Origin: Sulfuricurvum sp.
GTDB lineage: Bacteria; Campylobacterota; Campylobacteria; Campylobacterales; Sulfurimonadaceae
Assembly: GCF_028712165.1 (NCBI RefSeq)
Contig: NZ_JAQTQR010000025.1
Location: forward strand, 1 to 34,325
Direction of reading: 5' to 3'
Length of the DNA: 34,325 bases
In this document: positions 3,257-28,005 of the stretch, one piece after another
Layout: the number at the start of each line of letters is the position of its first letter
Numbering within the stretch: the stretch's first letter is position 1
The notes under the pieces: generated by a model
Seen by the model: the letters and a program-made list of their open reading frames with translations, nothing else
Database searches by the model: none
Told to the model about the DNA's origin: nothing
Position numbers and translations under genes: made by a program

Positions 3257-3808
3257 TCATTTATCTTTATTCCAAACCATACACATTGCACGCAGTCTAG
3301 CATTTTCTGCAAGCAAGCGTGCATTTTCTCTTTTTAATTCATTTGATTCTTTTGCCGATTCCCTTGCCCTTTCAATAATTCCTGCCTGCTCTTTGATCTG
3401 CCTATTCAACTCATCGATCTGCAAGTTTTTTACCTTCAGGTCTATCTTTTGCTTTTTTATCTCATCGATCTCGTCTCTAAGCTTCTTATTCTCCAGTATC
3501 AACCACGCTTTACTGTCTCGTTTGGGTTCGTCAGATGCCTTTGCATTTTCAAGATTTCTGATCTTTTTCATAAACGGATGCAAAAGTCGTTCAATCCTCT
3601 CATCATCTTTACTTTTCCTGTAAAGCGTTTTGACATTCACATTCAACTTTTTTGAAATAAGGATCATAGAAATGGAAGGCCATATGTAGCCTTTCTTTGG
3701 AATCTTTGAGTCAATTGGAATCTTCCTGATTTCATGGTGCTTTAATCGCTTTAGCCTATCGACAGCTTCTTTAATCTGCTCATAATCCACTTTTTCAGGT
3801 GCTGGCAT
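3257..3808 (-). CDS. Small HTH/coiled-coil accessory protein of the recombinase operon
   Basis: 183 residues. Residues 46-66 (SISMILISKKLNVNVKTLYR) look like a helix-turn-helix. Residues ~103-174 form a long, strongly charged coiled coil with heptad-like Leu/Ile/Ala spacing. The gene lies 3 bases after the 579-residue recombinase gene, with AAGGGG before its ATG, so it is translated from the same message. A small protein of this type closing a run of large tyrosine recombinases is what is seen in Tn554 (TnpC) and in GInt islands (GinD, a small helix-loop-helix protein needed for integration and excision). I infer the same role: DNA binding or assembly of the recombinase complex. Confidence 0.7.
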   Translation of the reverse strand: MPAPEKVDYEQIKEAVDRLKRLKHHEIRKIPIDSKIPKKGYIWPSISMILISKKLNVNVKTLYRKSKDDERIERLLHPFMKKIRNLENAKASDEPKRDSKAWLILENKKLRDEIDEIKKQKIDLKVKNLQIDELNRQIKEQAGIIERARESAKESNELKRENARLLAENARLRAMCMVWNKDK

Positions 3809-3811
3809 GTG

Positions 3812-5551
3812 TTAAATCCCCTTCGATTCTTGTTTAAGGCGATCGATAAGCCCGATTAGTGTCTGCGTATCGTTTTGAAACTCCATCATCCTTGCGTCCA
3901 ATTCATCTTTATATTCAGGAGAACTTTCTGCTTGACCATCGTATAACCTACTTAATTCCGGTGCAGTACGTTTTCTTTCTTGCAACATCTCGATAAAGGA
4001 TGGGATTTCAGATGCGTCTGGTTCAAACTTTTCGCATTCAGACAAATAACATGGCTTAACATCACCATACCCATACTGGCATGATTCGCCGAGGGCTAGC
4101 ATACAGAATCCATGATCATAATAGACAACACTAAGATCGTGCTTTCTTTTTATCGATGCATAAACCGCGAGCTGATCAAAGTAATCCAGATGTTCCCATT
4201 CCGAAGCTGATGCAACTCCAATAACTTCATTTGCAAAACTATTCACTTTTTGATTACTGACGTTGATCCCTAGCATTTTCCCTGCTGAAACAGCGCTCAT
4301 CTCCATGTAATCTCGCTCGTGACTTGAGGATATATATCCAGACGTTGTATCGATTTTAATATGGTTGAGATATTTTTGAATCATCTCTTCTGGCACACCC
4401 AAATCATACAACATCGTTGCAAAAGTGGCTCTCATCATATGAAAAGCGAAATACGGCAACCTCATGTCTTGAATGAATTTGTTTTTCGCTTTATGCAAAG
4501 CGGCATAACTGCGGACTTTAATAACGCCATGAGCCTTGTTGATAAACAGATATTCCGAACCGTTTTCCTCTCGCAACTCGTCTGTAAATTCCTCTATCTC
4601 TTTTAGGGTATCATAAACAACCTTGGAGACTAAAATTGGGGTGCCAATTGCCCATTCTTTAGTCTGCTTATCCTTTATTACCTGATGGCCTTTTAGCCAG
4701 TACATCTCCGACCAATCAGGATCAACTCCCCCAAGACCAATTTTATGCTTCCGACGATACTCCAGCGAATCTTTGATTTCATCATCGGAAACTGGTACAA
4801 GGCAGCCCTTTTTCAGCACTAAAACTTCAGTGATTCTCAATCCAGTATGTAAAGCCACCGTCATTGCGGCCTTAAGATATGGATCAGAGCATTTTACAAA
4901 TACTCTAGTGATCTTCAGTAAATCATCATAAGGAATCACTTTACTCTTCTGCACAAACTGTAAACGAACCAATTCTTGTCTAAACTGATAGCGCTCCTCA
5001 CCAGACATATAGCTAGATATTTCATGAGGTAGCAGTACGCTATAATCACGTCTAAACACCCATTCAAAACCTTTATAAACCCCACCCAATTGAGCTAGCA
5101 TCAACAGAGTATTATTTGCATACTGACTAGCCGTACGAGGTTGAAGAGAATCCTCACAGTCTTTGACAATAGAACTCTTCACACGTCGCTGCAGATCCCC
5201 GACATAATCCATCCAAGCATCATAGAAATTGTCTTTTTCGGTACTTGCCCCATGATTATCCAACGCAAATTTAAAAAAATATTTCGCATGATCGACCATA
5301 CTCCTCACGCTACTACCCTGAAAGTCTTGTCTTGTAAGCAACGTCCAAGCCCAGAATTTACATATTTTTTTGATCTCGTCGCTTGCCCACGTAAAGATTA
5401 CTGTTATTTTCGCATCAGGCCTCTTTTCATACTCCGACACATCCCATTCATCAGGAATATCTTTTACTACACTACTAATGTACTCTAGGTAAAATTTTCT
5501 TTCGCTTTTACTAGAGGGTTCTTGAAGGATTATTTCTTCAGCAGTACTCAT
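3812..5551 (-). CDS. Tyrosine recombinase (579 aa, TnpB/Gin type)
   Basis: The C-terminal catalytic domain has the full set of residues: R239 in HTGLRITEV, HMMR at 371-374, H397 in LNHIK and the nucleophile Y406 in TSGY. The N-terminal ~220 residues form a large arm and core-binding region. After the nucleophile there is an extra ~170-residue tail with a cysteine cluster (CMLALGESC then CYLSEC). That tail is also found in the large recombinases of Tn554-like and GInt-like elements but not in ordinary phage integrases. ATG 5551 has AGAGGAG upstream and overlaps the end of the preceding recombinase gene by 14 bases, so the two are translationally coupled. Role: strand exchange for integration and excision of the island. 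Confidence 0.88.
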   Translation of the reverse strand: MSTAEEIILQEPSSKSERKFYLEYISSVVKDIPDEWDVSEYEKRPDAKITVIFTWASDEIKKICKFWAWTLLTRQDFQGSSVRSMVDHAKYFFKFALDNHGASTEKDNFYDAWMDYVGDLQRRVKSSIVKDCEDSLQPRTASQYANNTLLMLAQLGGVYKGFEWVFRRDYSVLLPHEISSYMSGEERYQFRQELVRLQFVQKSKVIPYDDLLKITRVFVKCSDPYLKAAMTVALHTGLRITEVLVLKKGCLVPVSDDEIKDSLEYRRKHKIGLGGVDPDWSEMYWLKGHQVIKDKQTKEWAIGTPILVSKVVYDTLKEIEEFTDELREENGSEYLFINKAHGVIKVRSYAALHKAKNKFIQDMRLPYFAFHMMRATFATMLYDLGVPEEMIQKYLNHIKIDTTSGYISSSHERDYMEMSAVSAGKMLGINVSNQKVNSFANEVIGVASASEWEHLDYFDQLAVYASIKRKHDLSVVYYDHGFCMLALGESCQYGYGDVKPCYLSECEKFEPDASEIPSFIEMLQERKRTAPELSRLYDGQAESSPEYKDELDARMMEFQNDTQTLIGLIDRLKQESKGI

Positions 5552-8500
5552 CAGCCAACTCCTCTAGTCTTTTGACAATATTCTCATCCCTTTGACACTC
5601 CAGAAATAGGTGCTCAGAAAATCCAGTCCCTCTATATCGAGCAAGGCTCATGGATGATTTTTGATATTTCAGTTTCCAATACGGAAGATTTCCTGTAGTC
5701 GGGGTATATAATGCACACCCCTTACAGCCTGAGTTGCCCGAAGTTTGCCTAAATGCTTTACAACTGAAACATACGCTTGCACCACCCATACATTTTCCAC
5801 CCACAACATCTATGGCATCACCAAACTCTGCAGCCTGCTCGTCGGTCATAGGCTTTGGTTCTCCGGGGTATTTCGTCAAAATAATTTCTTTAATTGTGTC
5901 CTCTATCGTAGTAATAAGCGCACCCCTCTTCAAGGCCATAGTCTCACGTTGTGATACAGTATCTATATAGCTCTTCATAGTAGTCTCGATTCCATCACCT
6001 AATGCAGCTGCAACTAGTGCAATACTACTACCAGAACGAATAAGACGTGTCGCACCAGAGTGTCTAGACTGATGACCCGTAAACCCGTCTGGTAATCCCA
6101 AAATCTTTCGCAGCTCCACAAGCCGATCACTCAATCTAGAAGTAGATATAGGATAATAAAGCCCTTTTTTACCAGGAGATGCTGACTCCTCGAGAAATAT
6201 ATACTCTTTCAAATCCGGCACAACAACATCCCTGTGCACCTGTGTAATCTTGATAGCTTCATCTAAAAGGGACGGAACTAGATCGTCCATTACTAAAGCA
6301 AAAGGGTCTTTTCTCTCGCCCTTTAAACTAGCTAAACTCACAACTTCCATCTTCTTCTTCTTTTCTGAGTAATAACTCAGAATTTTTTCATTAGATGAGC
6401 CGAGAAGACGAAGTGTGTCGGTTTTCATATTCACAATCTCACTCACTCTGCGAAAGGTCATCAATTGCAGTACGGTCGCAATATCAAATAGGCGCTCTTT
6501 CGTCCGCTCTCCCGCACCCTTTTGAATATATGAGATAATAGCCTTCATATTGTCATCGGAAAGCAGCACCATAGATGACCTTCCCGATGCCTTCATTCTG
6601 AATTCGCCCTTATGTATAGCCACATGAGGATCAAACCATTCCGGCAGCAAAGGTTTCACTTTTCCAATCACAGCTCTCAGCAATAGAACCATAGCCTTAG
6701 CATTGGCTTCTTTCCCGCTGTCGCGCAGGTCATTACACCTATCATAAAACATCTGCTTTTTAATATTGGTGAATTCCTTCCACTGCAATATTCCAAGCTC
6801 ACCTAAAAAACTCTCCAAATGAACCGCGGTCAACATGTGAGTTGGCAGAGATACTCCCTTTGCTGCAGTCTCCTGCAAATAGACTTTGTCAAAATAGGTC
6901 TTCATTATATAGCGGAAGTCATCGTTTTTGATTTTAGAGAATTTCAACTCCCTCCCGTCAACGTACCAGACATCATCATCAAACACATATCCTTCATCTC
7001 TATTATCAAGTAAATCAGATGAAGCAACCCCATCTTTAACCATCAGTCTGTATACCTGCTTGATTTTAACCGTATCCATTTTTTCTATGTTGTAGTCATC
7101 AATAGTAAACTCAGATGTTTTTTTTGCCTCAAAAACCTCTTTTGCTTTTATGAGATGACTAAGGCAAGGTGTTTTTTTATTGTAGACACCCTCATGAAGC
7201 TTTGCAACGTAGTAAAATACATTATCTTTCTCACCTGCTAGTGCTTCCTCAACAATTCTCTTTTTGCGCTCTGAAGTGCTGGCATAAATGTCCTCCATCC
7301 AGCCTTTTTGAATAAACGGTACAATAAGCTCATTGACAATACGATTTTTCCGTAAATTTAGAGTTCTTCTTAAGGCTCCCTCCTCAAATACAAAATTATC
7401 TAAAAGATCATCATCAATCTCATCCAGTTGCTTTTCCTTGAAGGTCCATGCAAAAAGAAACGCACCAATGCCAATCTTTACATCACCACTGCAAATTGTC
7501 AATGCCCTCCCCATTACCTTATCTTGCCACTTGATATTGAGAGATTCCATATGATTTCGCGCAGCCACCAAGTGACTAGATTTAAGCGCAGTAGAGTCAA
7601 ACAACAGAGGATCTACCAACGCGCCAGCCATCACTGCTTCTCTTAATGCAAAATTGGCAATCACCCGCCTAGTACCATAGTCTGTGAATTGCTCCTCAAA
7701 CCACTTACGATCCACCTCTCCAAGAGGCTTTTGCAAAAGGCCAAAAAAGTTCTCAATATATTCAAATTTTATAGTGCGCTCATAGCTGCCGTACTCTTCA
7801 GTAGTTAAGCAAAGCATTCCATAGGCAACAGCTTCTGCGAGCGTTTTTATTCCTTTTGGCTCTTTTGGGGCCAACTCCTTAGCCTTCTCTTTTAGACCAT
7901 AATTTTGTTTGCTTGTTTTTTGAGTATATTTAAGATGCCTAAAGGCATCCTCAAGCAATCCCTCCTCCTTTAGAAATTTATGCTTCTCGGGATAATTACT
8001 CCGCCACCTTGCGATGTTTTTTTGTCTAAAAGCGACTTCAAGCGCTACTTTCTTTTTTTCCTCATAAGTCAATTCATTAAACGGCAATTTGCCTGAAGTC
8101 ATGTGAGCAGTAACCTCCACTAGACACCCGAGTTCAATTGCTTTTTTATAGTACCTACTTGCATGCTTCTGAAAAGCGCCAACAGCGTCATGCTTTTTAG
8201 CCGCCCTAGCAACAAGCTCCTTTGCTTCATCATCACGCATATCCGACCAGTTCTCAGGGATTGTCCAGCCCCCTGAAACCATCATCTCTTTCCAAACACC
8301 AAGCTCCTGAGCCTTCAAATACTTTCCAGGACTATCCCTTTCAAACAATCTTGCAGTCTTATGGTTGACAACAGATGCTACCAGCACTCGCTTTGCGTCT
8401 GCTTCACTTATCCTTGACCAAGGGACAATATCCCTCCATCCTGTTATTTCAAGAAACTCTTTACGAAGCCCCTTGCTGAGCAATTTAATATAGAGTTTAA

Positions 8501-8600
8501 TATTATTCTGAATAAATCCAGAGGATGAATTGTACTGTCCATATTTTTCACGCAAATCATCCAAACACTTCTCATTCGTTCGCTCCATTGGTTTTGTCAT
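5538..8600 (-). CDS. Very large tyrosine recombinase (~1020 aa)
   Basis: The C-terminal third is a tyrosine recombinase: FRRVSEI gives the first Arg, GHQSRHSGATRL the His-x-x-Arg (H843, R846), and MKSYID the nucleophile (Y878). The usual second His/Trp position falls in ALGDGIET and appears replaced, which is unusual. A cysteine cluster follows (C937, C944, C947, C959, C962), probably a zinc ribbon. The first ~600 residues carry no domain I can name; they contain repeated basic helical segments. ATG 8600 is chosen because TTGGGG precedes it. A GTG at 8639 would add 13 residues and overlap the serine recombinase gene by 23 bases, but has no ribosome binding site. The gene sits between the serine recombinase and the 579-residue recombinase in one operon. 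It fits the largest integrase of a GInt-type set. Confidence 0.85.
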   Translation of the reverse strand: MTKPMERTNEKCLDDLREKYGQYNSSSGFIQNNIKLYIKLLSKGLRKEFLEITGWRDIVPWSRISEADAKRVLVASVVNHKTARLFERDSPGKYLKAQELGVWKEMMVSGGWTIPENWSDMRDDEAKELVARAAKKHDAVGAFQKHASRYYKKAIELGCLVEVTAHMTSGKLPFNELTYEEKKKVALEVAFRQKNIARWRSNYPEKHKFLKEEGLLEDAFRHLKYTQKTSKQNYGLKEKAKELAPKEPKGIKTLAEAVAYGMLCLTTEEYGSYERTIKFEYIENFFGLLQKPLGEVDRKWFEEQFTDYGTRRVIANFALREAVMAGALVDPLLFDSTALKSSHLVAARNHMESLNIKWQDKVMGRALTICSGDVKIGIGAFLFAWTFKEKQLDEIDDDLLDNFVFEEGALRRTLNLRKNRIVNELIVPFIQKGWMEDIYASTSERKKRIVEEALAGEKDNVFYYVAKLHEGVYNKKTPCLSHLIKAKEVFEAKKTSEFTIDDYNIEKMDTVKIKQVYRLMVKDGVASSDLLDNRDEGYVFDDDVWYVDGRELKFSKIKNDDFRYIMKTYFDKVYLQETAAKGVSLPTHMLTAVHLESFLGELGILQWKEFTNIKKQMFYDRCNDLRDSGKEANAKAMVLLLRAVIGKVKPLLPEWFDPHVAIHKGEFRMKASGRSSMVLLSDDNMKAIISYIQKGAGERTKERLFDIATVLQLMTFRRVSEIVNMKTDTLRLLGSSNEKILSYYSEKKKKMEVVSLASLKGERKDPFALVMDDLVPSLLDEAIKITQVHRDVVVPDLKEYIFLEESASPGKKGLYYPISTSRLSDRLVELRKILGLPDGFTGHQSRHSGATRLIRSGSSIALVAAALGDGIETTMKSYIDTVSQRETMALKRGALITTIEDTIKEIILTKYPGEPKPMTDEQAAEFGDAIDVVGGKCMGGASVCFSCKAFRQTSGNSGCKGCALYTPTTGNLPYWKLKYQKSSMSLARYRGTGFSEHLFLECQRDENIVKRLEELADEYC

Positions 8601-8616
8601 AACTGCCCCAACAATA

Positions 8617-9168
8617 TCACTTGGCTCTCTCAATCGCACGATAGATTGTGGTTCTGTTCACACTGTAGCTTTGCGCCAAACTACTGACACACTCACCCAT
8701 CTCAATCAGATTTCTAATACTCACAACGTCCTCATTACTCAGTTTGACACCACGTCCAAACTTCACGCCTCTCTCTTGTGCCGCGCGCCGCCCAGCCTCG
8801 CTGCGCTCATTGATAATAGAGCGCTCGAATTCGGCGATGGCGGCGATCATATGGAACATGAGCTTTCCAGCGGGGCTAGACGTGTCGATATCCCGTTCAA
8901 GCACTACGAGGCTCACTCCTTTCCTTTCGAGCGTTTTAGAGGTGGTTTGCAGCTCATATGCGCTACGGCTTAAACGGTCAAGGCGCGTCACAACAATCTG
9001 ATCACCTTCACGGCCAAACTCCATCATGACCTCGAACTCTTTACGGTGAGCTTTTACGCCGCTGACCTTCTCCCTGTATATCTTCTCGCATCCTACTTTA
9101 TGTAGAGCCTTAAGTTGGAGATCGAGCGACTGTGATGTCGTAGATACTCTAGCATAACCTATTTTCAT
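8617..9168 (-). CDS. Serine recombinase (resolvase/invertase family)
   Basis: 183 residues from ATG 9168, which has GGAGAGAAG directly before it; an in-frame start at 9204 would add 12 residues that look unlike the family. The N-terminal resolvase domain has YARVST with the nucleophile S9, then RLDRLSRSA and the long E-helix region FHMIAAIAEFERSIINERS. A C-terminal helix-turn-helix (SSLAQSYSVNRTTIYRAIE) binds DNA. Size and order match Tn3-type resolvases and Hin/Gin-type invertases. It is the first gene of an operon otherwise made of tyrosine recombinases, which is unusual. It may resolve cointegrates, invert a segment, or be the remnant of a different inserted element. Palindromic repeats just upstream may be its binding sites. 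Confidence 0.9.
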   Translation of the reverse strand: MKIGYARVSTTSQSLDLQLKALHKVGCEKIYREKVSGVKAHRKEFEVMMEFGREGDQIVVTRLDRLSRSAYELQTTSKTLERKGVSLVVLERDIDTSSPAGKLMFHMIAAIAEFERSIINERSEAGRRAAQERGVKFGRGVKLSNEDVVSIRNLIEMGECVSSLAQSYSVNRTTIYRAIERAK

Positions 9169-9213
9169 CTTCTCTCCATGCACGTACTTGCTCTCCCTTT
9201 GCATTTAGCATAA

Positions 9214-9467: not shown

Positions 9468-9836
9468 TTATTTGTATTTCTCTTTATAGATCAACACATA
9501 GCCATTATGAAGATACACAATCGTTCCATCGTACTCCGGCGTCGCTTCTTTGATACAGATGTATGCCTTATTGATGATATAACTTATCGCATCATCCTCG
9601 TAGCGGATATGATTAACACGATTATCCTGTTCGTCAATATCGACAATGTAGTTCGGAAAAAGATTGCGAAAAATACGGATGAGAGTTTGGGATGAAATTT
9701 CTCTAACCGTATTTCTCATAATATTTGGATTGTCTTGGGGATAGTATCGCACTTCGCCAAGCTTGAGGTTGGGAAGCTTGCCTTCCATATGTTTGTCGCC
9801 CCTAAAATGTCCTATGACTTTGAGTTTATTGTCCAT
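9468..9836 (-). CDS. Unknown protein at the end of the Phd/NYN operon (122 aa)
   Basis: I do not recognise this protein. It is 122 residues, soluble, with no signal peptide, an acidic middle (NYIVDIDEQDNRVNHIRYED) and a Tyr/Ile-rich C-terminus ending in lysines. Its ATG overlaps the stop of the NYN gene by one base (TAATG), so it is almost certainly co-translated with it. This suggests a partner or modulator of the RNase. No motif for catalysis or metal binding is visible. Confidence 0.75.
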   Translation of the reverse strand: MDNKLKVIGHFRGDKHMEGKLPNLKLGEVRYYPQDNPNIMRNTVREISSQTLIRIFRNLFPNYIVDIDEQDNRVNHIRYEDDAISYIINKAYICIKEATPEYDGTIVYLHNGYVLIYKEKYK

Positions 9837-10465
9837 TATGATTCTTCCTTTTTGCGCAGTTTATATGCATTTAATCCGTGTATTTGTTCAGCCCATGTTG
9901 GGATTTTCTGATCAAACAGTACGGTAGTATTTAATCCTCTCTCCGTCGCGTCTTTCGCAATTTCAATAAAGTCGCTATCACTGGAGATGATGACTATTCC
10001 TGAGATCCGATCAACAAACTGGTAGTAGAGCTTTTTGAGCTGTTTATCCGCATCCTTTTTTTCTTCGAGCACCCAACCTAAACGACGTAGTTGAATTTTT
10101 CTCCATTCGATGTTATCCCCGTATTGTTGGAGCCACCACGGGATTCCTCGATCCATACGTATGTGATAGGAGATATACTTCATTGAATATCGAACCCCGA
10201 TTTTTTTGAGCATCGCTTCAATAGCAACTCTATCGTATGGGAAATTTATATTTTCAATGTCCCATAAAATCAAGTAAGGCTTAGCGTTTCGCCCCTTACG
10301 TTTTGGGGTAACAGTTTTATTTTTTGAACTTTTTGCTAGTGAGATATCTAAATCATATTCAACGCGTGGCCAGTCCTCTTCGGTATAGAGGATACCTGTT
10401 TCGTGATGATCTTGAAGCTCATCGCTGATAGACATGCCAAATTCGATATCTATTTTTTTTGGCAT
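9836..10465 (-). CDS. NYN-domain (PIN-like) RNase
   Basis: 209 residues. The NYN fold carries its acidic active-site positions: LILWDIEN (D69, N72), EEKKDADKQL (D138, D140) and IVIISSDSDF (D163, D165). Proteins of this family (LabA/DUF88, related to PIN nucleases) cleave RNA with metal ions. An N-terminal ~60-residue extension, acidic and then lysine-rich, precedes the fold. The gene overlaps the Phd-like gene upstream by 16 bases and the 122-residue gene downstream by one base, so the three form one translationally coupled operon. With a Phd/YefM-like partner, the likeliest role is the toxin of a toxin-antitoxin or abortive infection module; that is inferred. Its first ten codons are duplicated exactly about 0.5 kb upstream. 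Confidence 0.8.
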   Translation of the reverse strand: MPKKIDIEFGMSISDELQDHHETGILYTEEDWPRVEYDLDISLAKSSKNKTVTPKRKGRNAKPYLILWDIENINFPYDRVAIEAMLKKIGVRYSMKYISYHIRMDRGIPWWLQQYGDNIEWRKIQLRRLGWVLEEKKDADKQLKKLYYQFVDRISGIVIISSDSDFIEIAKDATERGLNTTVLFDQKIPTWAEQIHGLNAYKLRKKEES

Positions 10466-10466
10466 G
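10437..10466. repeat. 30-bp direct repeat, copy in the NYN gene start
   Basis: The 30 bases here (core TTCGATATCTATTTTTTTTG) are identical to 10941-10970, in the same orientation. On the coding strand this copy spans the first ten codons of the NYN gene (MPKKIDIEFG) and the last codons of the Phd-like gene. A weaker match continues for ~12 bases on the right side (ttacacc against ctgcacc). Confidence 0.9.
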
Positions 10467-10800
10467 TTACACCCATGTATGTTATGTACTCACGTATTCG
10501 TAACCCAGGATGTATTAAATCAGCATAATATTGTTGGATTGCAGGATCTTCACATGCTTCTCTTATTTTTTGACGCCGATCGTTGCGCCAATTTTCATAG
10601 GCAATTTTTGTACGATATATTCGCTCATATTCTGTGGCGGAAATAACTATTGCTTCGATACGTTCGTTATGGAGAATTGCAAACTGCGTTTTTTCTCCAG
10701 AAGATAAATCATCGAGAAATTGATCTATATTTTTGGCGCATTCAGACGACGAAATAATTTCATATTCGAATAAACCAAACTCATATTGTGTGGCTACCAT
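10450..10800 (-). CDS. Phd/YefM-like antitoxin
   Basis: 116 residues. Residues ~13-62 fit the Phd/YefM antitoxin fold: EIISSSECAKNIDQFLDDL, then FAILHNERIEAIVISATEYERI, the typical 'name-your-target, do not touch' strand-helix pattern. A ~50-residue basic and acidic C-terminal tail follows, which in this family wraps and inhibits the toxin. AAGGAG precedes its ATG. Its 3' end overlaps the NYN gene by 16 bases, the usual antitoxin-first order. The canonical partners Doc and YoeB are absent; the NYN RNase takes that position. It is expected to repress its own promoter through its N-terminal part. The gene lies between two exact 30-bp direct repeats, so it may have been inserted as a unit. Confidence 0.8.
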   Translation of the reverse strand: MVATQYEFGLFEYEIISSSECAKNIDQFLDDLSSGEKTQFAILHNERIEAIVISATEYERIYRTKIAYENWRNDRRQKIREACEDPAIQQYYADLIHPGLRIREYITYMGVTCQKK

Positions 10801-10858
10801 GTGAGCTCCTTATAATTTTTGCTATATCTAGAAATCACAACAAACTCTTCTTATGAAA

Positions 10859-10969: not shown

Positions 10970-10970
10970 G
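10941..10970. repeat. 30-bp direct repeat, copy at the zinc-ribbon gene end
   Basis: Identical over 30 bases to 10437-10466. On the coding strand it holds the last codons (CQKK, stop) of the zinc-ribbon gene and the truncated NYN start. The 474 bases between the two copies contain the Phd-like gene and its promoter region. Confidence 0.9.
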
Positions 10971-12255: not shown

Positions 12256-12276
12256 ATATTTTAATGAAGAAGATAA

Positions 12277-12528: not shown

Positions 12529-12562
12529 TTTAAAAAGTTTAATCATACTAAGGAGTTAGCAC

Positions 12563-19256: not shown

Positions 19257-21833
19257 TCAAAGCCTCAAAATAGAACTAATACTCAAGTCCATAGCCTTTT
19301 GCGATGGAACGAATAAATAGCTAAACGAACTGTGCTCTGCCATATCCTCAGCATATTTCTTTTTAGCTTGAACCACCACATCATTTATTTTATCTTCACC
19401 CTTGATCTCCACCATAACCCAAGAATCATCGAATTTTTGTACTAAAAAGTCAGGGTAGTATTTACGGACTGTATGTGACTCTGGATCGATATACGAAACA
19501 TAAAAATCTGATTGACCATGGGTTAGTTGGCCGGTAAAGAATACTCGTTTTATTTCCTTCTCATCTTTCATTGCTTTTTTAAAGAATGTGATCTCAGGAT
19601 TTGAATCAAAACAATAAGGATTATAATGAAATGATTTAGAGGCATTTTCTGTGTCAAAAGCATCAAGAACCTTATCAAGGGTTGCTGTAACACATTTAAA
19701 GCCTTCTTGACCTTCTGGAGGCTCATTAACAAGAGATATTTCTTGTTCATACGAGGTTTGTTTCTCTTCGAGGTCCCAAAAATGATTAAATAGTTTTGGA
19801 ATAATGACATCATGAATGATTTCATTATATTTGTTGACCATTTCAAGAATAGCATTGATACCATCTTCTGATGTTTCAAGCAATGTTTCTATAAGTAAAG
19901 ATGGTTTCCCTATGTAAGCACTGCAAAGCGAAACAAGCATCATTTCTGAGTAGTTAGTTTGGCGCTTTTTGATATCTTCTTTATAAGTATGATTACCTAG
20001 ATTTTTAAGCCCTTCCATAGTTGTGACGGTTGCAAGGTACTTGTGTGTGTCAACGGTGTTTAAGGCAAAATCAATGCCATCTTTTGCTAAGACTTTTTCT
20101 TTTAATTCATAGGTTCGTTGAACGCGTTTGATTTTGAGTTTTTCTAGTGGAAGCTTGACTTTGAGCGTAATAATTTCTTTATCAGATGCATCTTTATTGC
20201 CGAAATTTTCTAGCTTCATGTTGAAGTTTGCTTCGAGTTCTGAGGCCAAAATCTGTTCATTTTCTGATGAAAGATAAACATGACCGTTGAGTTGTGCCGG
20301 TTCGACCGCTCTAAGACATCTCATCGTTGCTTGTAATACGAATATTTTTGACTGAGGTTTTCGATAAAGTGCCGTTGAAAAAAGACTGCGACAGTTCCAT
20401 CCCTCTTGGCCTTTGTTGACTAAAAGTATGAATTGTTTTTCGCTTGCAGGGGTATCGAGGTTTATAAACTCACGTATGTCATCGTTAGTGGTAAGTTTTG
20501 GATCACCAACATTTACTAAGATCTTGCTTGTATCAATGTTGAGTTCATCTAAGACCGCTTCCAATGCTGGCTTCAAATCGTTTTCAAGGATATCGATGCT
20601 TGGCGCGAAAAAAGCAATCTTTGGCAGCATGTTTTCAAATCGTTTGCCTGCAAATTTAGTCCAAAAATCGCTGATGACTTGTTTCACAAAATCCGATTCA
20701 CCAACGTTGTCATAGGCTTTTACAATAGGATTTTTGAGATATTTTTTTTCAATCGCATCTTTGAGTGAGTAAGCATAAACGACTTCAGGGATCAGCTTGT
20801 TGTTTACATAAGGCGTACCCGTGAAGTTATAGCATCCAACGACCGTCGTCTGCTCTGAAATCGCATCGATAGAGGCCTTAAGCTTTTTCATGCTCCCTTC
20901 TAGTGTCGTCCCAAATGCATGGTGGGCTTCATCAACATAAATTGCCAAGTTGTCCAACCGTAAAAGCTTCTCAAAGCGTTGATTCTTGGTTAGGTACTTG
21001 TCGTCTATCAACACAACATTGTCGAGGTCAAGCATTGCATCCATGTCTTCGAGAATACTCAGAACATCAGAATCCATCAATTTTTTGACAGCACTGACTT
21101 CGGTTGCTTTTTCTTGCAATGATATTTTTTGTTGATTAGTAATAATGATATTAAAATCACTTCCATCAAGTGTATTGAGTTGCGTACTGGTGTCTGCAAG
21201 GAAGTGAAACTTGATTTCACTGTTGATAAAGTTCCGATACTCAGGCGGTATAACAAGTGATTTATCAAAAGTAATGATCTCACGTAGCGACTCAAGAACG
21301 GTTCTGTCGGGAGCAAATACAAGCGCATTATGTGCATACAGCTTATCTTTTGGAAACTTGTTCGCCAAGATGAACTCATAGAAAATTGTCGTGGCCATGA
21401 GGATCGTTTTACCTGTTCCCATGGTAAGAGCGAATACATAGTCGGGATAGTTACGTTTTAATTGCTCTAATTGTTTTTTGAGATCTTTATAGTAGCCATC
21501 AAAGAGCTTTTGCTCATCTTCTACGAAATTGAAAACTCCTTGCTTTCCTTGTGTAGTAGAGATAGCTAGTTCCTCTTGCTCATAAAGATGGGTAAACACA
21601 TCAAAAACTTTCTTGTTTTCAAAAAACTCTTTCATGAAGACATAGATTTCAAGTGCTTTAAATTGAGGTTCCCTTAGATATCCGTCTTCGTTGTAATCCA
21701 AATAAACTTTTGTGACACGGCGATATTTTTTTTTGATCATACCCTTGTTGCGTTCGTAATAAGCGAGCAAGTTCGTAAAGAGTGAGTACTGATCGATGTC
21801 AGGCTGTGTTGATTGAGATTTTTTCTTAGCCAT
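19257..21833 (-). CDS. Type III restriction enzyme, Res subunit
   Basis: 858 residues from ATG 21833; an in-frame TTG at 21848 adds five. Superfamily 2 helicase motifs are in order: TMGTGKT (137-143), VDEAHHAFG (DEAHH 301-305), FTGTPY and QATMRCLRAVEP (motif VI). A C-terminal PD-(D/E)XK nuclease has PD (794-795) and EIK (809-811). Res translocates or diffuses along DNA with ATP and cuts near unmethylated sites in complex with Mod. It is somewhat shorter than typical Res (~950-1000 residues) but all motifs are present. Its start overlaps the mod stop by eight bases, the usual coupling for type III systems. Confidence 0.92.
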   Translation of the reverse strand: MAKKKSQSTQPDIDQYSLFTNLLAYYERNKGMIKKKYRRVTKVYLDYNEDGYLREPQFKALEIYVFMKEFFENKKVFDVFTHLYEQEELAISTTQGKQGVFNFVEDEQKLFDGYYKDLKKQLEQLKRNYPDYVFALTMGTGKTILMATTIFYEFILANKFPKDKLYAHNALVFAPDRTVLESLREIITFDKSLVIPPEYRNFINSEIKFHFLADTSTQLNTLDGSDFNIIITNQQKISLQEKATEVSAVKKLMDSDVLSILEDMDAMLDLDNVVLIDDKYLTKNQRFEKLLRLDNLAIYVDEAHHAFGTTLEGSMKKLKASIDAISEQTTVVGCYNFTGTPYVNNKLIPEVVYAYSLKDAIEKKYLKNPIVKAYDNVGESDFVKQVISDFWTKFAGKRFENMLPKIAFFAPSIDILENDLKPALEAVLDELNIDTSKILVNVGDPKLTTNDDIREFINLDTPASEKQFILLVNKGQEGWNCRSLFSTALYRKPQSKIFVLQATMRCLRAVEPAQLNGHVYLSSENEQILASELEANFNMKLENFGNKDASDKEIITLKVKLPLEKLKIKRVQRTYELKEKVLAKDGIDFALNTVDTHKYLATVTTMEGLKNLGNHTYKEDIKKRQTNYSEMMLVSLCSAYIGKPSLLIETLLETSEDGINAILEMVNKYNEIIHDVIIPKLFNHFWDLEEKQTSYEQEISLVNEPPEGQEGFKCVTATLDKVLDAFDTENASKSFHYNPYCFDSNPEITFFKKAMKDEKEIKRVFFTGQLTHGQSDFYVSYIDPESHTVRKYYPDFLVQKFDDSWVMVEIKGEDKINDVVVQAKKKYAEDMAEHSSFSYLFVPSQKAMDLSISSILRL

Positions 21834-23748
21834 TTGACATGACCTCAAAATAGGTTTCTGATACTAAATCTGTAATTTTGATCGCTACGGTTCCTCGGTC
21901 TTCTGGTAGCTCATATTCACCTAAAACCAATTCTTTTTTGTCAGGAATATCAACAATTTTTGGTTCGAATACTGACCCGTCATAGTTGGTGTCAATCATG
22001 ATCGATTCTACCATTTCACGGTAATCTTCAACTTCAGTACCATCTTGGCGGAGTTTTTCAAGCAAGCTATTCGGATAGAATTTTTGAATCTTGAGTTGAT
22101 TGCCATCTATGACAATTTGGGCTTCAGATTCACGTTTAAAAACAAGTTCGGAACCGTCTTTTAAGATGTCATATATATCGATGTTAATATTGTATGGACA
22201 TTCGTTCTTGAAATGGCCTTTAATATCAGGATCATGCCCCATACATACCAGCAGAATATCGTCCACTTTGGCTTTGCTATTTTCTTTTGAAAGCTCTTCG
22301 TATGCTTTATAATCGAGGTTCATAATAAGATTAGAGACATCGGCCTTGGTTGCAATACGATTTACTGGCATAATCTTGACCTTCTGGCCATCTTTCATCC
22401 CATCAAAGTAGCTAGAGTTTCCAAGTGGATCGATTTCGAGTGCTTCTATGAGAAGGTCTTTGGCCTGTACTGGATTTCTGAAGACATCGTAGTTGTTCAC
22501 ATTGAATACTTCAAAGCCACACCCCTTGTATTCATCATCTTTTATTAGATCTAAGTATTTATTTTCATCTACTATATTTAAGAGGCGTTTTGTAGTAGTT
22601 TGAATAGCACCAAGATTAATATCTGCACCTATAAAGCGTCTACCTAGTTTTTGTGCAGCAGCCATTGTTGTTCCTGAACCCATAAAGCAGTCTAGAATAA
22701 TACTAGATTGATTTGAAGACATTTTAATTATTCGCTCAAGTAAAGCTTCTGGTTTTTGTGTGGGATAGTCTAACCGTTCGTGAGATTGTGATGCAATTAC
22801 TGGAATATCTGTCCACAATGAATTAACTTCATATCCTTGCCATTCATCCAGATATTGTTTCCTTCTAATTCTTCCATCTTTGTTGCTAGGTAGCAATAAT
22901 TTTCCTTCGTCATAATACCTTTGCATAACTTCTGGTTTAACACTCCACCCATTTCTTCCAGGTTTATATCCCATAAAATCGTACATCAAAGTTGGCCTTG
23001 GAGCAGGTGCATTTAAAGCTGTTGACTGATACTTTCTTCCGTTTGCATCAGTTTGATTAAAACTACTTTTTATATATTCTTCTGCACCATGCTGCGTGAA
23101 TTGACTATTAAAAATTTTATCATCTGTTTTAGAATAGACGAGTAAATAATCAACTATATTTTCAATTCTATTTGCGTCAGGTGACGTTTTACTCATCCTT
23201 CTTTTCCAAATAATTTCATTAACTAAATTTTTTTCGCCAAATATTTCATCCATGATGCATCTTAAATGGTGAACTTTATGCCAATCACAATGTAAATATA
23301 TTGAACCTTGATCGGAAAGCAATTCCCGCAATAAAACTAACCTCTCATACATAAATTGAAGATATTCATCATTTGACCACATATCGGTATATTGTTTCTC
23401 TTCAAACATAGAAGTATCATTTGTAACTTCCATTCCTTTTAGATTGATTTTTTTCTTGTAATCTGCTTTAGAATCAAATGGTGGATCGATATAAATCAAA
23501 TCAACTTGACCACGATACTCTTTCAAGAGATGTGACATTACTTGGATATTGTCACCCCAAAATATCTTATTAAGCCATCCGTTGATATCTTCACCATGAA
23601 CTTCTTTGAGTTGCGCAGGAAAATATTTAGTGCCTTTAAAAGGTCGCTTCCCCTTCCAGTTAAGCATAGGAAACCCTTTAATAGGCTCGAATTTATATTC
23701 TGCTACTTTCTCTAAACTGGTATCTAATTCTAAATTTTGTGACTCCAC
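21826..23748 (-). CDS. Type III DNA methyltransferase, Mod subunit
   Basis: 640 residues from GTG 23748, with AGGAG seven bases upstream. It is a beta-class adenine methyltransferase: catalytic DPPF (88-91) precedes the target recognition region, and TQKP (330-333) with FMGSGT (355-360), the S-adenosylmethionine pocket, follows. It sets the sequence specificity of the system and protects host DNA. The recognition sequence cannot be read from the protein. No long homopolymer or tandem repeat for phase variation is seen near the start, unlike many Campylobacterota mod genes. It lies nine bases after the helicase-nuclease gene and overlaps res. Confidence 0.92.
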   Translation of the reverse strand: MESQNLELDTSLEKVAEYKFEPIKGFPMLNWKGKRPFKGTKYFPAQLKEVHGEDINGWLNKIFWGDNIQVMSHLLKEYRGQVDLIYIDPPFDSKADYKKKINLKGMEVTNDTSMFEEKQYTDMWSNDEYLQFMYERLVLLRELLSDQGSIYLHCDWHKVHHLRCIMDEIFGEKNLVNEIIWKRRMSKTSPDANRIENIVDYLLVYSKTDDKIFNSQFTQHGAEEYIKSSFNQTDANGRKYQSTALNAPAPRPTLMYDFMGYKPGRNGWSVKPEVMQRYYDEGKLLLPSNKDGRIRRKQYLDEWQGYEVNSLWTDIPVIASQSHERLDYPTQKPEALLERIIKMSSNQSSIILDCFMGSGTTMAAAQKLGRRFIGADINLGAIQTTTKRLLNIVDENKYLDLIKDDEYKGCGFEVFNVNNYDVFRNPVQAKDLLIEALEIDPLGNSSYFDGMKDGQKVKIMPVNRIATKADVSNLIMNLDYKAYEELSKENSKAKVDDILLVCMGHDPDIKGHFKNECPYNINIDIYDILKDGSELVFKRESEAQIVIDGNQLKIQKFYPNSLLEKLRQDGTEVEDYREMVESIMIDTNYDGSVFEPKIVDIPDKKELVLGEYELPEDRGTVAIKITDLVSETYFEVMSNG

Positions 23749-23757
23749 TGTTATCTC

Positions 23758-26682
23758 CTAAAATATACTGCTTTTACATTTTTCTTCTGGTTTTGTTCTT
23801 GTGCAATAGTGTTTAAAATCACATTCTTTACATAAGTCCAGCGGTCTTGCTGATAAGGTATAATCTTTATTCTCTATTTTATCCACAACCTTATCAAACG
23901 ATGCTAAGGTCTTCTCAATGGATGAGCTATTCTTGATATAGCTGATCTTCGGATCGCCTTCCGTCTCCCCTGTATAGTAAAGATGCATCTTGGAGACAGT
24001 TTTGCCATATTTTTCCTCTACGATATGAGCATACACTTCCAGCTGTCTTTGATAAAGCTCAAGGCGGCCTTTTTTTAAATCTTTAGGCTTCTTGGTTGCT
24101 TTAAAATCAACAATCTCAACTGTATCATCTTGTCCTTGGATAAGATCGATTACGCCTTTTAAAATATAATCTTTACGTAGCACTGATATATCAACTTCGG
24201 CGGCAACAATGTCTTTGAATTTGGTCTGATTGCGCTTATAGTAGTTCATGACATGTCTAAGTGCTGCTTTTAACGCCCCTTTATCCAAATATGCGTTTTC
24301 CTTCAATGCGAGTAGATTATAGTTTGTATTTAACCACTCCTCTATGCGCCATTCTGGGATTGGTTTAAAATTATTCTTGAATGTATCAGTATGTATATCC
24401 TCTATGGTCTGATGCACTAGTGTACCAAATATAATCGTACCCGATCTGGCAGGGGTAAATTCCAACTCTCTATAAAACTTGTATTGGAGTGGACAATTCT
24501 CATAAAGAGCAATGTCTGAGGTAAAACTATACTGATGGTTGATTTTGGCTTTTTTAACGCTTTCCAGTTCAAGCTTCACATCTTTTAGTGTTTCTTTTTT
24601 CCATGAAGGAATTTTCAAAAGGGTGCTTGCTAGTGCTTTTGAAGGTATCGGCCACGATCCTGTTGGTCGTATCATATCAGAGAGTAGGAGTAAATTCTGT
24701 GCTCTTGAGAAAGCGGTGTAGTAGAGTCGTGTAAAATCAAAATCTGCAATCATCTCATAGGGCTCAAACTCTTTTTTGGCCATAAACGGTAATAATTTAT
24801 CATCCAGTTCTTTGTGCTGTGATCTTGGCTTATTATGAAGCCCTGTCACGATGGTTACGGGGAATTCCATCCCTTTGGACTGATGAATTGTCATGAACGA
24901 AATAGCACCTGATGGAGCTAACACTTCACCGTCTTCATACTCACTAATCCCGCCTTGATATAAATAGTGCAGGAAAACAGAGAAATAGTTTTTCAACACA
25001 CTATCGAGCTTTGATTCGCTAAGGACGGAAACATAGTAGTATCCTTCGAATTTAACAGTTAAGTCTATGAACATTGAGAGATTTCTGGTGGCCAATGAGC
25101 TATTTGTTAAAAAATTTGCAAACGGTTCAAATTGAATCAACTTATAGATAAGAGAGGTAATACTATCATCTGTAGTTTGCCCCTTGTCTATCTGGGTGTA
25201 GATTTTAGCTTGGGTTCTTATGAATAGTAGCAGTTCGGGATCGGGATTGTTTTTAATGTAGCTCTGAGCCGTTAACAAACATTTTTTGATATAGTAGTCT
25301 TTAATTGTATCAGTTTCATAGATATCACCACGCTGATACGAATCGATAAACCTTTTGAAAATGATCAGCAAAAATCCTATAATGAGTTTAATCTCATCAC
25401 GTTGGAAGTAAAAATCCGAACGGGGTGAAAAAACAGGAATTTGATTCTCTTCCAAGAATCCAATAAGATTTTTAATTCGATCGCCTTTAACAGAGTTTGC
25501 CAAAAATGTAATCTGATTTAGGTCAGCAAGTGTATTGGTAGCTTGAAGATACTGAATAAATTCTAAGACACCTTGATTCCAAGCCTCTTCCTCTTCGACC
25601 ATTAGCTTTAAGACGGACGGATACTTAACAAACTCTTTGTCTTTGGGTGGTTGAATCGTTTTGTCATGACGATAGGAAACACCGTCTTGAGTCCAGGTTT
25701 TGCTTTTGATGTAATCATTGTAAAAATCTATTATTTTCTCATGAGAGCGGTAATTGGTTTCTAACTTTACGACCTTACAATCATCAAATTTATTTGAGAA
25801 CTCAAGAATATTTCTAACCGTTGCTCCTCTAAACCGATAAAGAGACTGATCATCGTCACCCACAACACACATCTTTTTGCTCTTCGAAGCGAGCTTCAAG
25901 AGGATCATTTCTTGAAGGGTATTTGTGTCTTGGTATTCATCGATCATAAAATATTCGATCTTATTTTGAATCATTTCTATCACTTCTGGATGTTCAGTTA
26001 TGAGGCGATAAAATTCCTTTTCAATAAGAGCGAAGTCTATGCAGTTTTCTTCTATCATCAAGTGATAGTAGTAGTCGTATGCTTTTGCGTATACTCGTAG
26101 TTCTTCATCGTTTGATACAGCCAATAGGGCCGTATCAATATTCTCCTCGGTAAATTTATTAAAGAGTGCAATTAGAACTTCTGTGCGAGCCCAGTTGTCT
26201 TTTGGCTTGATGAATTCTGCCAACTCTGGTATTTTTTTAAATATTCCATAGATGTGTCTGTATACATAATACTTTTGGTCAAAGTCATCGAGAATAGAGT
26301 AGCTGCGTTTAAAAACAGAATATTCAAGATGTTCATCAATGAGCTCTAAAAATATACTATGAAGTGTTCCGATATAAAAGTCGTTGACGTTAATCTTTAG
26401 TCCATGTTCAAGTATTTTATTCGAAATACGTGTTAGAAGCTCTTTCGCTGCTTTTTCGGTAAAAGTTGAGATGAATATATTCTCAGGCAAAACCTGCTTC
26501 TCGACAAGAATGTGGACAATGCGCTCTGTAAGAGTAAAGGTTTTTCCTGAACCTGGCCCTGCAACTATTAGAAGTGGCTGTTCTGTGATTTCTACGGCTT
26601 GTTTTTGCGGTGTTGATAACAAATCGGACGCCCCATCATTAAATATAATTAAATAATACAATCCATTTGCTAAAATTCTCAA
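23758..26682 (-). CDS. UvrD/PcrA-like helicase fused to RecB-type Fe-S nuclease
   Basis: Superfamily 1 helicase motifs: AGPGSGKT (41-48), MIDEYQDTN (DEYQD 248-252), VGDDDQSLYRFRGA, LETNYRS, TIHQSKGMEFP and YTAFSRA. The C-terminal ~220 residues are a RecB/AddB-type nuclease: YENCPLQYKFYREL, VEIVDFKATKK and QRQLEVYAH, with an iron-sulfur cysteine set made of that first Cys plus C951, C954 and C960. Such fusions unwind and degrade broken or foreign DNA. It is first in the operon and ends nine bases before mod, so it is probably expressed with the type III system. The start is uncertain: the frame opens at TTG 26682 without a ribosome binding site, while TTG 26622, just before STPQKQAV, has GGGG seven to ten bases upstream and gives a more typical N-terminus. 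Confidence 0.88.
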   Translation of the reverse strand: MRILANGLYYLIIFNDGASDLLSTPQKQAVEITEQPLLIVAGPGSGKTFTLTERIVHILVEKQVLPENIFISTFTEKAAKELLTRISNKILEHGLKINVNDFYIGTLHSIFLELIDEHLEYSVFKRSYSILDDFDQKYYVYRHIYGIFKKIPELAEFIKPKDNWARTEVLIALFNKFTEENIDTALLAVSNDEELRVYAKAYDYYYHLMIEENCIDFALIEKEFYRLITEHPEVIEMIQNKIEYFMIDEYQDTNTLQEMILLKLASKSKKMCVVGDDDQSLYRFRGATVRNILEFSNKFDDCKVVKLETNYRSHEKIIDFYNDYIKSKTWTQDGVSYRHDKTIQPPKDKEFVKYPSVLKLMVEEEEAWNQGVLEFIQYLQATNTLADLNQITFLANSVKGDRIKNLIGFLEENQIPVFSPRSDFYFQRDEIKLIIGFLLIIFKRFIDSYQRGDIYETDTIKDYYIKKCLLTAQSYIKNNPDPELLLFIRTQAKIYTQIDKGQTTDDSITSLIYKLIQFEPFANFLTNSSLATRNLSMFIDLTVKFEGYYYVSVLSESKLDSVLKNYFSVFLHYLYQGGISEYEDGEVLAPSGAISFMTIHQSKGMEFPVTIVTGLHNKPRSQHKELDDKLLPFMAKKEFEPYEMIADFDFTRLYYTAFSRAQNLLLLSDMIRPTGSWPIPSKALASTLLKIPSWKKETLKDVKLELESVKKAKINHQYSFTSDIALYENCPLQYKFYRELEFTPARSGTIIFGTLVHQTIEDIHTDTFKNNFKPIPEWRIEEWLNTNYNLLALKENAYLDKGALKAALRHVMNYYKRNQTKFKDIVAAEVDISVLRKDYILKGVIDLIQGQDDTVEIVDFKATKKPKDLKKGRLELYQRQLEVYAHIVEEKYGKTVSKMHLYYTGETEGDPKISYIKNSSSIEKTLASFDKVVDKIENKDYTLSARPLDLCKECDFKHYCTRTKPEEKCKSSIF

Positions 26683-26707: not shown

Positions 26708-26847
26708 TTAGCTCCTTTTTGTTGTTAGTTTCGCACCTTTTTCATTTTCGTGCCAAGCCAGTTCAGTCTCCAGTTCATAAAGAGCAGCACATCATCTTCA
26801 ACGAACTTATTTCTCATTTCTGCAAATTTATCCATATAAAGTTTCAT
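26708..26847 (-). pseudogene. Possible small frameshifted gene upstream of the helicase
   Basis: ATG 26847 (or 26835) with AGGA upstream opens MDKFAEMRNKFVEDD and then runs into a low-complexity reading that stops at 26725. In another frame the same stretch continues as ALYELETELAWHENEKGAK and stops at 26708, with AAGGAG next to the stop. The two halves together read like one ~45-residue helical protein broken by a small indel near 26785-26795. This is a weak call from appearance only. Confidence 0.3.
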
Positions 26848-26907
26848 TAGTCCTGCAAGGAGCTACTTCAGACATCAGAGTATCAAATAGGCAACGATTA
26901 TTTCAAT

Positions 26908-28005
26908 TCAGTAGAAAGTGGATGTACTGTCAATCTCATCCAAACGTACACCGATATTCCTCGCGCCATCTACTGCAGCCATGCCAACCTTCAGTGTTAA
27001 TCCACGGGAATAGATAGAAATAGTAGCTACAGACTTATGCCCCATCTGTGTTTTGACTTCCGTTTCTGATGCACCCTCCAATAAAAGGTTTGTAGCAAAG
27101 GAATGTCTACCTTTATGAGGAGAGATAATCTTCGGATTTAATCCAGCAAGCTTTGCATCCTTCTTCATCGCCTTGTAGATGGCCATATAGGACAAAGGGT
27201 CTCCAGGCACAGTAGTACCATTCTTATTTTTGGCTGGTCTTTCAGCAGTGAATATTTCGTGGTGTTTATTGCTGTTTTCATATCGCATAGTCCTAATATA
27301 CCGCGATACCTTTTCTGCCAATAACGTCCTAATCCAAACAGGGCGTCCCTCAGATTTTGGCTGTTTACGCTGATCCTTGTTGTAGGAAACATAAACATGA
27401 AAACAGAAAAATTCTTCATCGCCTGCTCTTGGAACATCATAGAATTCTTTATAGTCAATATTAAAAAGCTCACCTATCCTCACCCCCGACTCATAGAGGA
27501 ATTGGTAGATCAATTTATTTCGCCCAGAAGCCACATTCATCAATTGCGCCCAATCATCAATTTCAACAGCTTTAGACTTAGGGTCATCTTGCGCTGGAAT
27601 ACGCATTCTCGGTATATCAAAAGACAATCCGTAAAGCGGCTTGATGAAATTCATCAAGAACTGTCTTGCATCCCTCTCTCTCAATGCAATAGTGCTCTTT
27701 TTGAGGTTATTCTTTTTTCTCTCAACATCATCACCCCTATACATCTTGTCAGATGCAAGCCACTGCCTGTACTCCATAAAAATCTCATAGGTCATAAATC
27801 TAACATTAATATACAAATAGTCTAGGTATTCAAATAAAAGGCGAAGGGAATATGCTACACGTTCTTGTGTATTTAAAGAGTCTTTATAATTCTCATGGAT
27901 ATATCTATTGGCTATCGTGACAGGCTGATCATTGTCATTAAACAAAAACCATCTTTCCCCTTGACCAATATCAAGCTTAACAACCTCAAACTTTGAATGC
28001 ATCAT
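26908..28005 (-). CDS. Tyrosine recombinase (365 aa, TnpA/GinA type)
   Basis: A complete catalytic set is visible: R176 in SGVRIGEL, K in the beta-hairpin region around KDQRKQPKSEGR, HKGR at 297-300, H323 in MGHKS and nucleophile Y332 in SIYSR. The N-terminal ~130 residues form the core-binding domain. TGGGGAT precedes ATG 28005. Size and composition resemble TnpA of Tn554 (361 residues) and would fit the first integrase of a GInt-type set. It is the rightmost island gene, reading inward from the probable junction at ~28138. The other recombinase genes lie ~18 kb away on the same strand. It could instead belong to a separate smaller element. Confidence 0.9.
   Translation of the reverse strand: MMHSKFEVVKLDIGQGERWFLFNDNDQPVTIANRYIHENYKDSLNTQERVAYSLRLLFEYLDYLYINVRFMTYEIFMEYRQWLASDKMYRGDDVERKKNNLKKSTIALRERDARQFLMNFIKPLYGLSFDIPRMRIPAQDDPKSKAVEIDDWAQLMNVASGRNKLIYQFLYESGVRIGELFNIDYKEFYDVPRAGDEEFFCFHVYVSYNKDQRKQPKSEGRPVWIRTLLAEKVSRYIRTMRYENSNKHHEIFTAERPAKNKNGTTVPGDPLSYMAIYKAMKKDAKLAGLNPKIISPHKGRHSFATNLLLEGASETEVKTQMGHKSVATISIYSRGLTLKVGMAAVDGARNIGVRLDEIDSTSTFY

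What the first reader, a model, noticed from the sequence alone, without database searches (positions are those of the whole stretch)
3257..28005. GInt-like recombinase set split by about 18 kb of defence cargo
Seen: three tyrosine recombinases (365, ~1020 and 579 residues) and one small HTH/coiled-coil protein, all on the minus strand. The last three form a coupled operon (3257-8600); the first lies alone at 26908-28005. Known: GInt islands carry a contiguous ginABCD operon of three integrases plus a small helix-loop-helix protein, all required for movement, followed by cargo. Inference: this is a GInt relative in which the first gene has been separated from the rest by the cargo (helicase, type III R-M, STAND, NYN/Phd genes), or a variant island carrying cargo between its recombinase genes. 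If functional, both recombinase loci flank the same defence block.
Basis: partly seen in the sequence, partly recalled or inferred. Interest (0 to 1): 0.65.

Follow-up and report, generated by a model that had tools for sequence, protein, structure and literature searches.

The report
Split four-gene recombinase island interrupting mutS
A mobile island of bacterial defence genes has landed inside the DNA-repair gene mutS, and one of the four recombination genes that relatives keep side by side sits about 18 kb away from the other three, with defence genes between them and a different kind of recombinase in its usual place.

Summary
In detail: three tyrosine recombinases and a small helical/coiled-coil protein, all minus strand, one recombinase (365 aa) about 18 kb from the other three genes. 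New findings. (1) The 365-aa protein is the 'A' type (Tn554 TnpA-like); the 1033- and 579-aa proteins are both 'B' type (TnpB-like signature and post-tyrosine Cys tail). The window therefore holds a complementary A + B + B + D set, in the order seen contiguously in Malaciobacter and P. putida plasmids. (2) The A gene starts 133 bp from the island's right end, which lies inside mutS: MutS is cut after codon 43 and the rest is on another contig. (5) Neither w365 nor w1033 has a close match elsewhere in about 400 sampled genomes of the phylum. I read it as a split, hybrid member of the Tn554/SE/GInt class, probably working in trans. It is not filed as a GInt: contiguity and the degenerate GinC fail. 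The left end and mobility are untested. The main rival is two elements side by side.

The parts
28138..28266 (-). 5' fragment of host mutS, codons 1-43 (...TLVIIEVG), cut by the island; the fragment then reads K-stop
   Evidence: Homologous to intact mutS in same-genus genomes; the rest of mutS, from residue 195, is on contig C67
28006..28137 (.). Right terminal region of the island, 132 bp between the A gene and mutS
   Evidence: Homology to relatives stops at 28138; the A start to contig/element end is 132-139 bp in four Bacillus-group Tn554-like contigs
26908..28005 (-). A-type tyrosine recombinase, 365 aa (TnpA/GinA/IntA position)
   Evidence: A profile 109 bits vs 74 (single integrases) and 32 (B), including the N-terminal domain; trees
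8617..9204 (-). Serine recombinase (resolvase/invertase type), 195 aa, in the slot where relatives carry A
   Evidence: PF00239 2.4e-42; phrog_125 DNA invertase 2.4e-60
5538..8639 (-). Large B-type tyrosine recombinase (gene 2), 1033 aa from GTG or 1020 aa from ATG 8600; about 540-aa N-terminal extension with an internal repeat
   Evidence: B-type signature, R718 H843 R846 Y878 and Cys tail; Cys tail and B profile; internal repeat
3812..5551 (-). B-type tyrosine recombinase (gene 3), 579 aa
   Evidence: B profile 112 bits, Cys tail; R239 H371 R374 H397 Y406
3257..3808 (-). Small helical/coiled-coil protein, 183 aa (TnpC/GinD/Srap position)
   Evidence: AlphaFold2 single-sequence model; weak similarity to TnpC-type proteins
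9468..26682 (.). Cargo between A and the other recombinase genes: 122-aa ORF, NYN, Phd-like, 442-aa ORF, HTH, 224-aa ORF, NACHT/STAND with Cap4-like nuclease, type III R-M (Res + Mod), UvrD helicase-PDDEXK
   Evidence: Pfam and PADLOC scans
384..3007 (+). Cargo left of the operon: 139-aa ORF, TIR protein, Lit-like peptidase
1..127 (-). 5' part of a group II intron that ends the contig
   Evidence: Rfam RF02004 at 1-73, 69 bits; GTGCG 5' end at 127 read from the sequence

Best explanation
It is an integrated mobile island of the multi-tyrosine-recombinase class (Tn554, SE and GInt elements). It entered the chromosome inside mutS. Its four recombination genes are split: the A-type recombinase stays at the island's right end, 133 bp from the junction, while the two B-type recombinases and the small coiled-coil protein form an operon 18 kb inward, led by a serine recombinase in the usual A position. 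Inferred mechanism: the four proteins are made from two transcription units and meet in trans at the island ends. A acts on the terminal site, the B-type pair supplies strand exchange and end specificity, and the coiled-coil protein stimulates or orients the reaction, as TnpC does for Tn554. Shown: gene classes, catalytic residues, order, right junction, mutS interruption. Inferred: function in trans, mobility, role of the serine recombinase, loss of MutS function.
For: w365 fits the A profile best (109.1 bits vs 73.7 and 31.8), including a separate N-terminal match (residues 10-109). w1033 and w579 fit the B profile best (53.6 and 112.1). The Cys tail is in 0 of 26 A, 22 of 24 B, 0 of 20 single integrases, and in both w1033 and w579 but not w365. 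Trees put w365 on the A side (SH-aLRT 90; 92/94) and do not reject one clade (AU p 0.47). The same quartet is contiguous in Malaciobacter pAMYT, P. putida pKF715A and, with an IS cassette inside, Chondrocystis. The operon has no A-type gene of its own, and the only A-type gene on the contig is w365. A-to-end distance is 133 bp here and 132-139 bp in Tn554-like contigs. mutS is continuous at this point in seven same-genus genomes and cut here.
Against: All identities are low (14-29%) and w365, w579 and w1033 are long branches; w1033 is unplaced by tree and its BLAST hits mix A and B types. No other example of a split quartet was found; A was directly upstream of B in 45 of 45 loci. The left junction and mutS residues 44-194 are missing from the assembly, so end pairing is unproved. 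One near-invariant histidine (H-III) is Asp in w1033.
Confidence: 0.6

Rival explanations
1. Two elements side by side or nested: a single-integrase defence island run by w365 sits in mutS, and a separate element with its own recombination module (serine recombinase plus two tyrosine recombinases plus coiled-coil protein) lies next to or inside it.
For: The operon is self-contained, with the serine gene 17 bp upstream. w365 is a deep, long branch not nested among known A proteins. Contiguity is otherwise universal. Defence genes lie on both sides of the operon.
Against: A complete trio should include an A-type gene, and this operon has none, while the lone recombinase is A-type. w365 scores better with A than with single integrases. 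No operon of this make-up without A was seen in any collection searched.
Confidence: 0.25
2. A decayed or immobilised island: the split is the result of a rearrangement that left the recombinase genes as relics, with no current mobility.
For: The arrangement is unique; the H-III residue is Asp in w1033; a group II intron sits near the left side; neither w365 nor w1033 has a close match elsewhere in about 400 genomes of the phylum.
Against: All four ORFs are open over full length with R, H-x-x-R and Y in place in the three recombinases, and the mutS remainder on C67 is open without stops, which suggests a recent insertion.
Confidence: 0.1
3. Assembly artefact: the contig joins pieces that are not neighbours in the genome.
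For: Draft genome of 130 contigs; about 450 bp of mutS are missing between C63 and C67.
Against: The A gene sits at the distance from the junction expected for this class; the recombinase genes and most of the genes between them share one strand and similar composition.
Confidence: 0.05

Closest known systems
GInt islands (ginABCD; Bardaji et al. 2017, PMC5385486)
   Same: Three tyrosine recombinases plus a small coiled-coil/HLH protein, cargo of tens of kb, A gene near one end, insertion in a protein-coding gene.
   Different: The GInt operon is contiguous at the 5' end; here A is 18 kb from the rest. GinC lacks the first Arg; here both large proteins keep it. A serine recombinase is added. 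No published Gin sequence could be compared directly.
Strand-biased circularizing elements, SEs (IntA-Tfp-IntB-Srap; PMC10214605), and the pKF715A quartet L122
   Same: Gene order A, 2, 3, small coiled-coil protein; A of about 365 aa in pKF715A.
   Different: Tfp lacks the RHRY residues; w1033 keeps R, H-x-x-R and Y and is about 350 aa longer than the pKF715A gene 2. The A gene is contiguous in SEs.
Tn554/Tn553 family (TnpA, TnpB, TnpC = DUF6262)
   Same: A-type and B-type recombinases with the same signatures; TnpC-like last gene; A about 135 bp from the end.
   Different: Tn554 has one B-type gene, contiguous genes and small cargo.
Malaciobacter mytili pAMYT quartet (NZ_CP031220; A 409, 466, 600, D 130)
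   Same: Same order of bacteria; same four gene classes in the same gene order, all catalytic residues present.
   Different: Contiguous and overlapping; gene 2 is 466 aa without the N-terminal repeats; no serine recombinase.
SpyCI islands in S. pyogenes mutL (PMC4129442)
   Same: Integration into the 5' end of a mismatch-repair gene, which gives a mutator phenotype there.
   Different: Phage-like islands; mutL, not mutS; in the present case no phenotype is known.

Membership tests
GInt | Three tyrosine recombinases plus a small helical protein | tested here: met
GInt | Contiguous ginABCD operon at one end of the element | tested here: not met
   A is at 26908-28005, the others at 3257-8639
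GInt | Third recombinase (GinC) lacks the first catalytic Arg | tested here: not met
   R718 in w1033 and R239 in w579 are present
GInt | Flanking imperfect direct repeats of 10-17 nt and AT-rich 3' end | not testable with these tools
   Left junction not in the assembly
GInt | Sequence relation to published GinA-D | not tested
   No published Gin sequence was obtained from the collections; pKF715A was used as an SE/GInt-like stand-in
Tn554/SE/GInt multi-recombinase class (broad) | A-type recombinase together with B-type recombinase(s) carrying the Cys tail and a TnpC-like coiled-coil protein | tested here: met
   Profiles and Cys tail; TnpC-like by weak similarity and fold only
Tn554/SE/GInt multi-recombinase class (broad) | A gene at the element end, reading inward | tested here: met
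   A starts 133 bp from the mutS junction and reads inward
Tn554/SE/GInt multi-recombinase class (broad) | A directly upstream of B | tested here: not met
   18 kb apart here; adjacent in 45 of 45 reference loci
SE | Gene 2 (Tfp) without catalytic residues | tested here: not met
   w1033 keeps R, H-x-x-R and Y
SE | Strand-biased circle and 6-bp footprint | not testable with these tools
   Needs DNA from the strain and a left junction
Single-integrase island | Lone integrase groups with unrelated single integrases | tested here: not met
   w365 falls on the A side, 92/94; A profile beats single profile by 35 bits; long branch, so moderate only

The most novel reading that the evidence does not exclude
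The serine recombinase has become part of the recombination system: a hybrid serine-tyrosine module in which it acts on an inverted 18-nt pair (9332-9349 and 28063-28080) lying upstream of the operon and upstream of A. It would invert the 18.7-kb block and switch A between a distant and a divergent neighbouring position, tying island excision (and mutS repair) to an inversion switch.
Probability: 0.06. Interest if true: 0.8.

Novelty: new variant of a known kind. Interest (0 to 1): 0.45.

Why it matters
If the split set works, the recombination genes of this island class need not be an operon at one end, so annotation rules that look for three adjacent integrases will miss members. It also ties a defence island of this class to mutS: excision could restore mismatch repair, a reversible mutator like the mutL islands of streptococci, in an environmental Campylobacterota lineage where none was reported in the papers I found.

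Tried and rejected
Close relatives of w1033, w579 and w365: none in IMG/VR with single queries, none of w1033 in GTDB contigs, none of w1033 or w579 in plasmids at E 1e-3. w365 had only weak plasmid and phage hits, several to unrelated single integrases with scores as good as to TnpA, so trees and profiles were needed. Alignment A1 was too diverse to scan with. The first Aeromonas and E. coli hits were class 1 integron contexts. AlphaFold model of w1033: pLDDT 47, not used. N-terminal repeats of w1033: no relatives in PDB, plasmids, or convincingly in phages. Candidate left terminal repeat at 152-215: among the top few of 1362 positions but others score higher by chance. Promoter scans of the regions upstream of A and of the operon gave no more sites than shuffles. 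Second MutS-like gene as an acquired rescue: rejected, it lies in core context on C54. An earlier count gave the mutS cut as codon about 46; the exact count is 43.

Full report
What is there. The window is a complete 34,325-base contig (C63) of a 2.72-Mb draft genome in 130 contigs. It belongs to the same order as Malaciobacter mytili: genome G284, listed as same order, is that species by the identity of its plasmid contig, so the host is Campylobacterota. The four ORFs of the finding are present as described. Three match the Phage_integrase domain. The fourth, 183 aa, has no family match but folds as N-terminal helices and one 84-residue helix with pLDDT about 95. It ends 17 bp before the ATG of the large recombinase, so the operon is serine recombinase - 1033 - 579 - 183.

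Where the island ends. A segment starting at 28138 is conserved in same-genus genomes. It is the 5' end of mutS: codons 1-43, ending in ...TLVIIEVG. In seven relatives the gene runs on without a break; here it stops and the element begins. The remaining mutS is on contig C67 from residue 195 and is open; residues 44-194 are not in the assembly, so the left junction is not seen. In E. coli MutS the motif just after this point holds the mismatch-contacting Phe and Glu (own knowledge; here GSFFEVYE in relatives), so the gene is cut just before it. The start of the 365-aa gene is 133 bp from the junction and the gene reads inward. In four Bacillus-group contigs that appear to be whole Tn554-like elements, the A gene starts 132-139 bp from the contig end. 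This match supports both the junction and the role of the 365-aa protein.

What the proteins are. I collected A-B-C trios and A-2-3-D quartets from plasmids and genomes: Tn553, Mycobacterium, Legionella, Metabacillus, Sulfurimonas aquatica, Malaciobacter, P. putida pKF715A, cyanobacteria and Rhodococcus, and 49 GTDB loci. Profiles built without the window proteins give: w365, A 109.1, single integrases 73.7, B 31.8 bits; w579, B 112.1, single 57.3, A 40.2; w1033, B 53.6, single 31.3, A 25.9. w365 matches the A profile also in its N-terminal domain (residues 10-109). A Cys tail after the catalytic tyrosine occurs in 0 of 26 A, 22 of 24 B and 0 of 20 single integrases; w1033 and w579 have it, w365 does not. 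In the B alignment both keep R, H-x-x-R and Y and the upstream W/F signature; the near-invariant H-III is Asp in w1033. In the trees w365 falls on the A side (SH-aLRT 90; 92/94) and A plus w365 as one clade is not rejected (p 0.47), but it is a long branch and the group also takes in three single integrases. w1033 could not be placed by tree. w183 resembles TnpC-type proteins only weakly and is assigned by position and fold.

Why the split reading is favoured. The operon has two B-type genes and a TnpC-like gene but no A. The only A-type gene on the contig is 18 kb away at the island's end, on the same strand. Relatives carry A - gene 2 - gene 3 - D in just this order, contiguous and overlapping (Malaciobacter, pKF715A); in Chondrocystis an IS cassette lies between genes 2 and 3, and in S. 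aquatica an IS256 cuts gene 3. In 45 of 45 loci with a B gene the A gene is directly upstream (one search counts 44 within its gap limit, the other overlaps by 86 bp). This set is mostly Firmicutes and cyanobacteria and was fetched by similarity to the A gene, so it is not a census. The split is therefore unusual, and the serine recombinase fills the vacated place. Serine relatives of 39-54% identity occur in 13 of 60 relatives (12 besides this genome), so it looks like a locally common accessory that was recruited or inserted (inference).

Large extension. w1033 has about 540 residues before the B-type signature, with a clear internal repeat (residues about 60-112 and 117-170, score 62 against a shuffle maximum of 37). 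No relatives of this part were found. My guess is DNA binding; this is inference.

Mechanism. Most likely the four proteins act in trans at the two island ends as in Tn554, SEs and GInts; in GInts all four genes are essential (PMC5385486), in Tn554 three (Bastos and Murphy 1988, cited in PMC10214605). Separation need not stop function, since the products diffuse, but it removes co-transcription. Excision could restore mutS if it is precise; in GInts and SEs it often leaves changed or no empty sites (PMC5385486, PMC10214605), so whether repair returns is open. A mutL precedent exists in SpyCI islands (PMC4129442, abstract).

Leads not proved. An 18-nt inverted pair at 9332-9349 and 28063-28080, upstream of the operon and of A, is reached in 8 of 5000 shuffles for that pair, with 0.17 such pairs expected over all intergenic regions. 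It could mark an invertible block for the serine recombinase, but this is weak and would not by itself recreate an A - gene 2 junction. A possible left terminal repeat at 152-215 is no better than several chance positions.

Rarity. w1033 and w365 each matched closely only their own genome among 397 genomes of the phylum: w1033 had one marginal hit in another genome (3.5e-4) and w365 one at 8.3e-12, the Malaciobacter A gene. The mutS-serA region is variable among relatives: the two genes are close together in one and about 4 kb apart in others.

Verdict. It is a new variant of a known kind, unproved as to mobility, with the two-element reading as the main rival.

Noticed in passing
window 28138-28266; contig C67:1-2343 (L025): mutS interrupted after codon 43; residues 44-194 of the gene are missing between the two contigs. 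A switchable mutator state is possible.
   Followed up: partly
window 10437-10478 and 10941-10982: 42-nt direct repeat, 90% identical, flanking the Phd-like gene; looks like a recombination scar or cassette boundary.
   Followed up: no
window 1-127: Group II intron 5' part on the minus strand ends the contig, with GTGCG at 127.
   Followed up: partly
window 28267-28409 and 32277-32682: Imperfect inverted copies of a GTCATTCCC...GGGAATCCA sequence on both sides of the 1288-aa gene; repeat of REP/MITE type, a similar sequence lies upstream of mutS in a relative.
   Followed up: no
window 28410-32276: AT-rich 1288-aa ORF with no family match in Pfam or PADLOC between the mutS fragment and serA; looks like a TPR plus caspase/CHAT-like protein by eye.
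   Followed up: no
window 13319-19102: 1927-aa NACHT/STAND protein with an N-terminal Cap4-like nuclease domain, likely an anti-phage sensor.
   Followed up: no
L052:9875-15505: Paenibacillus oleatilyticus carries a four-gene A-B-B-C version (391, 680, 672, 127 aa), so four-gene sets with two B-type recombinases also occur in Firmicutes.
   Followed up: partly
L034:5149-11007: Sulfurimonas aquatica pSULFM1 has a quartet whose third gene is cut by an IS256 element, with the DUF6262 gene stranded beyond it.
   Followed up: partly
G000:C54:29511-31532: A second, shorter MutS-like protein (673 aa) in a core gene neighbourhood; not an acquired replacement for mutS.
   Followed up: yes
window 895-3007: TIR protein followed by a Lit-like peptidase, a possible two-gene defence unit left of the recombinase operon.
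   Followed up: no
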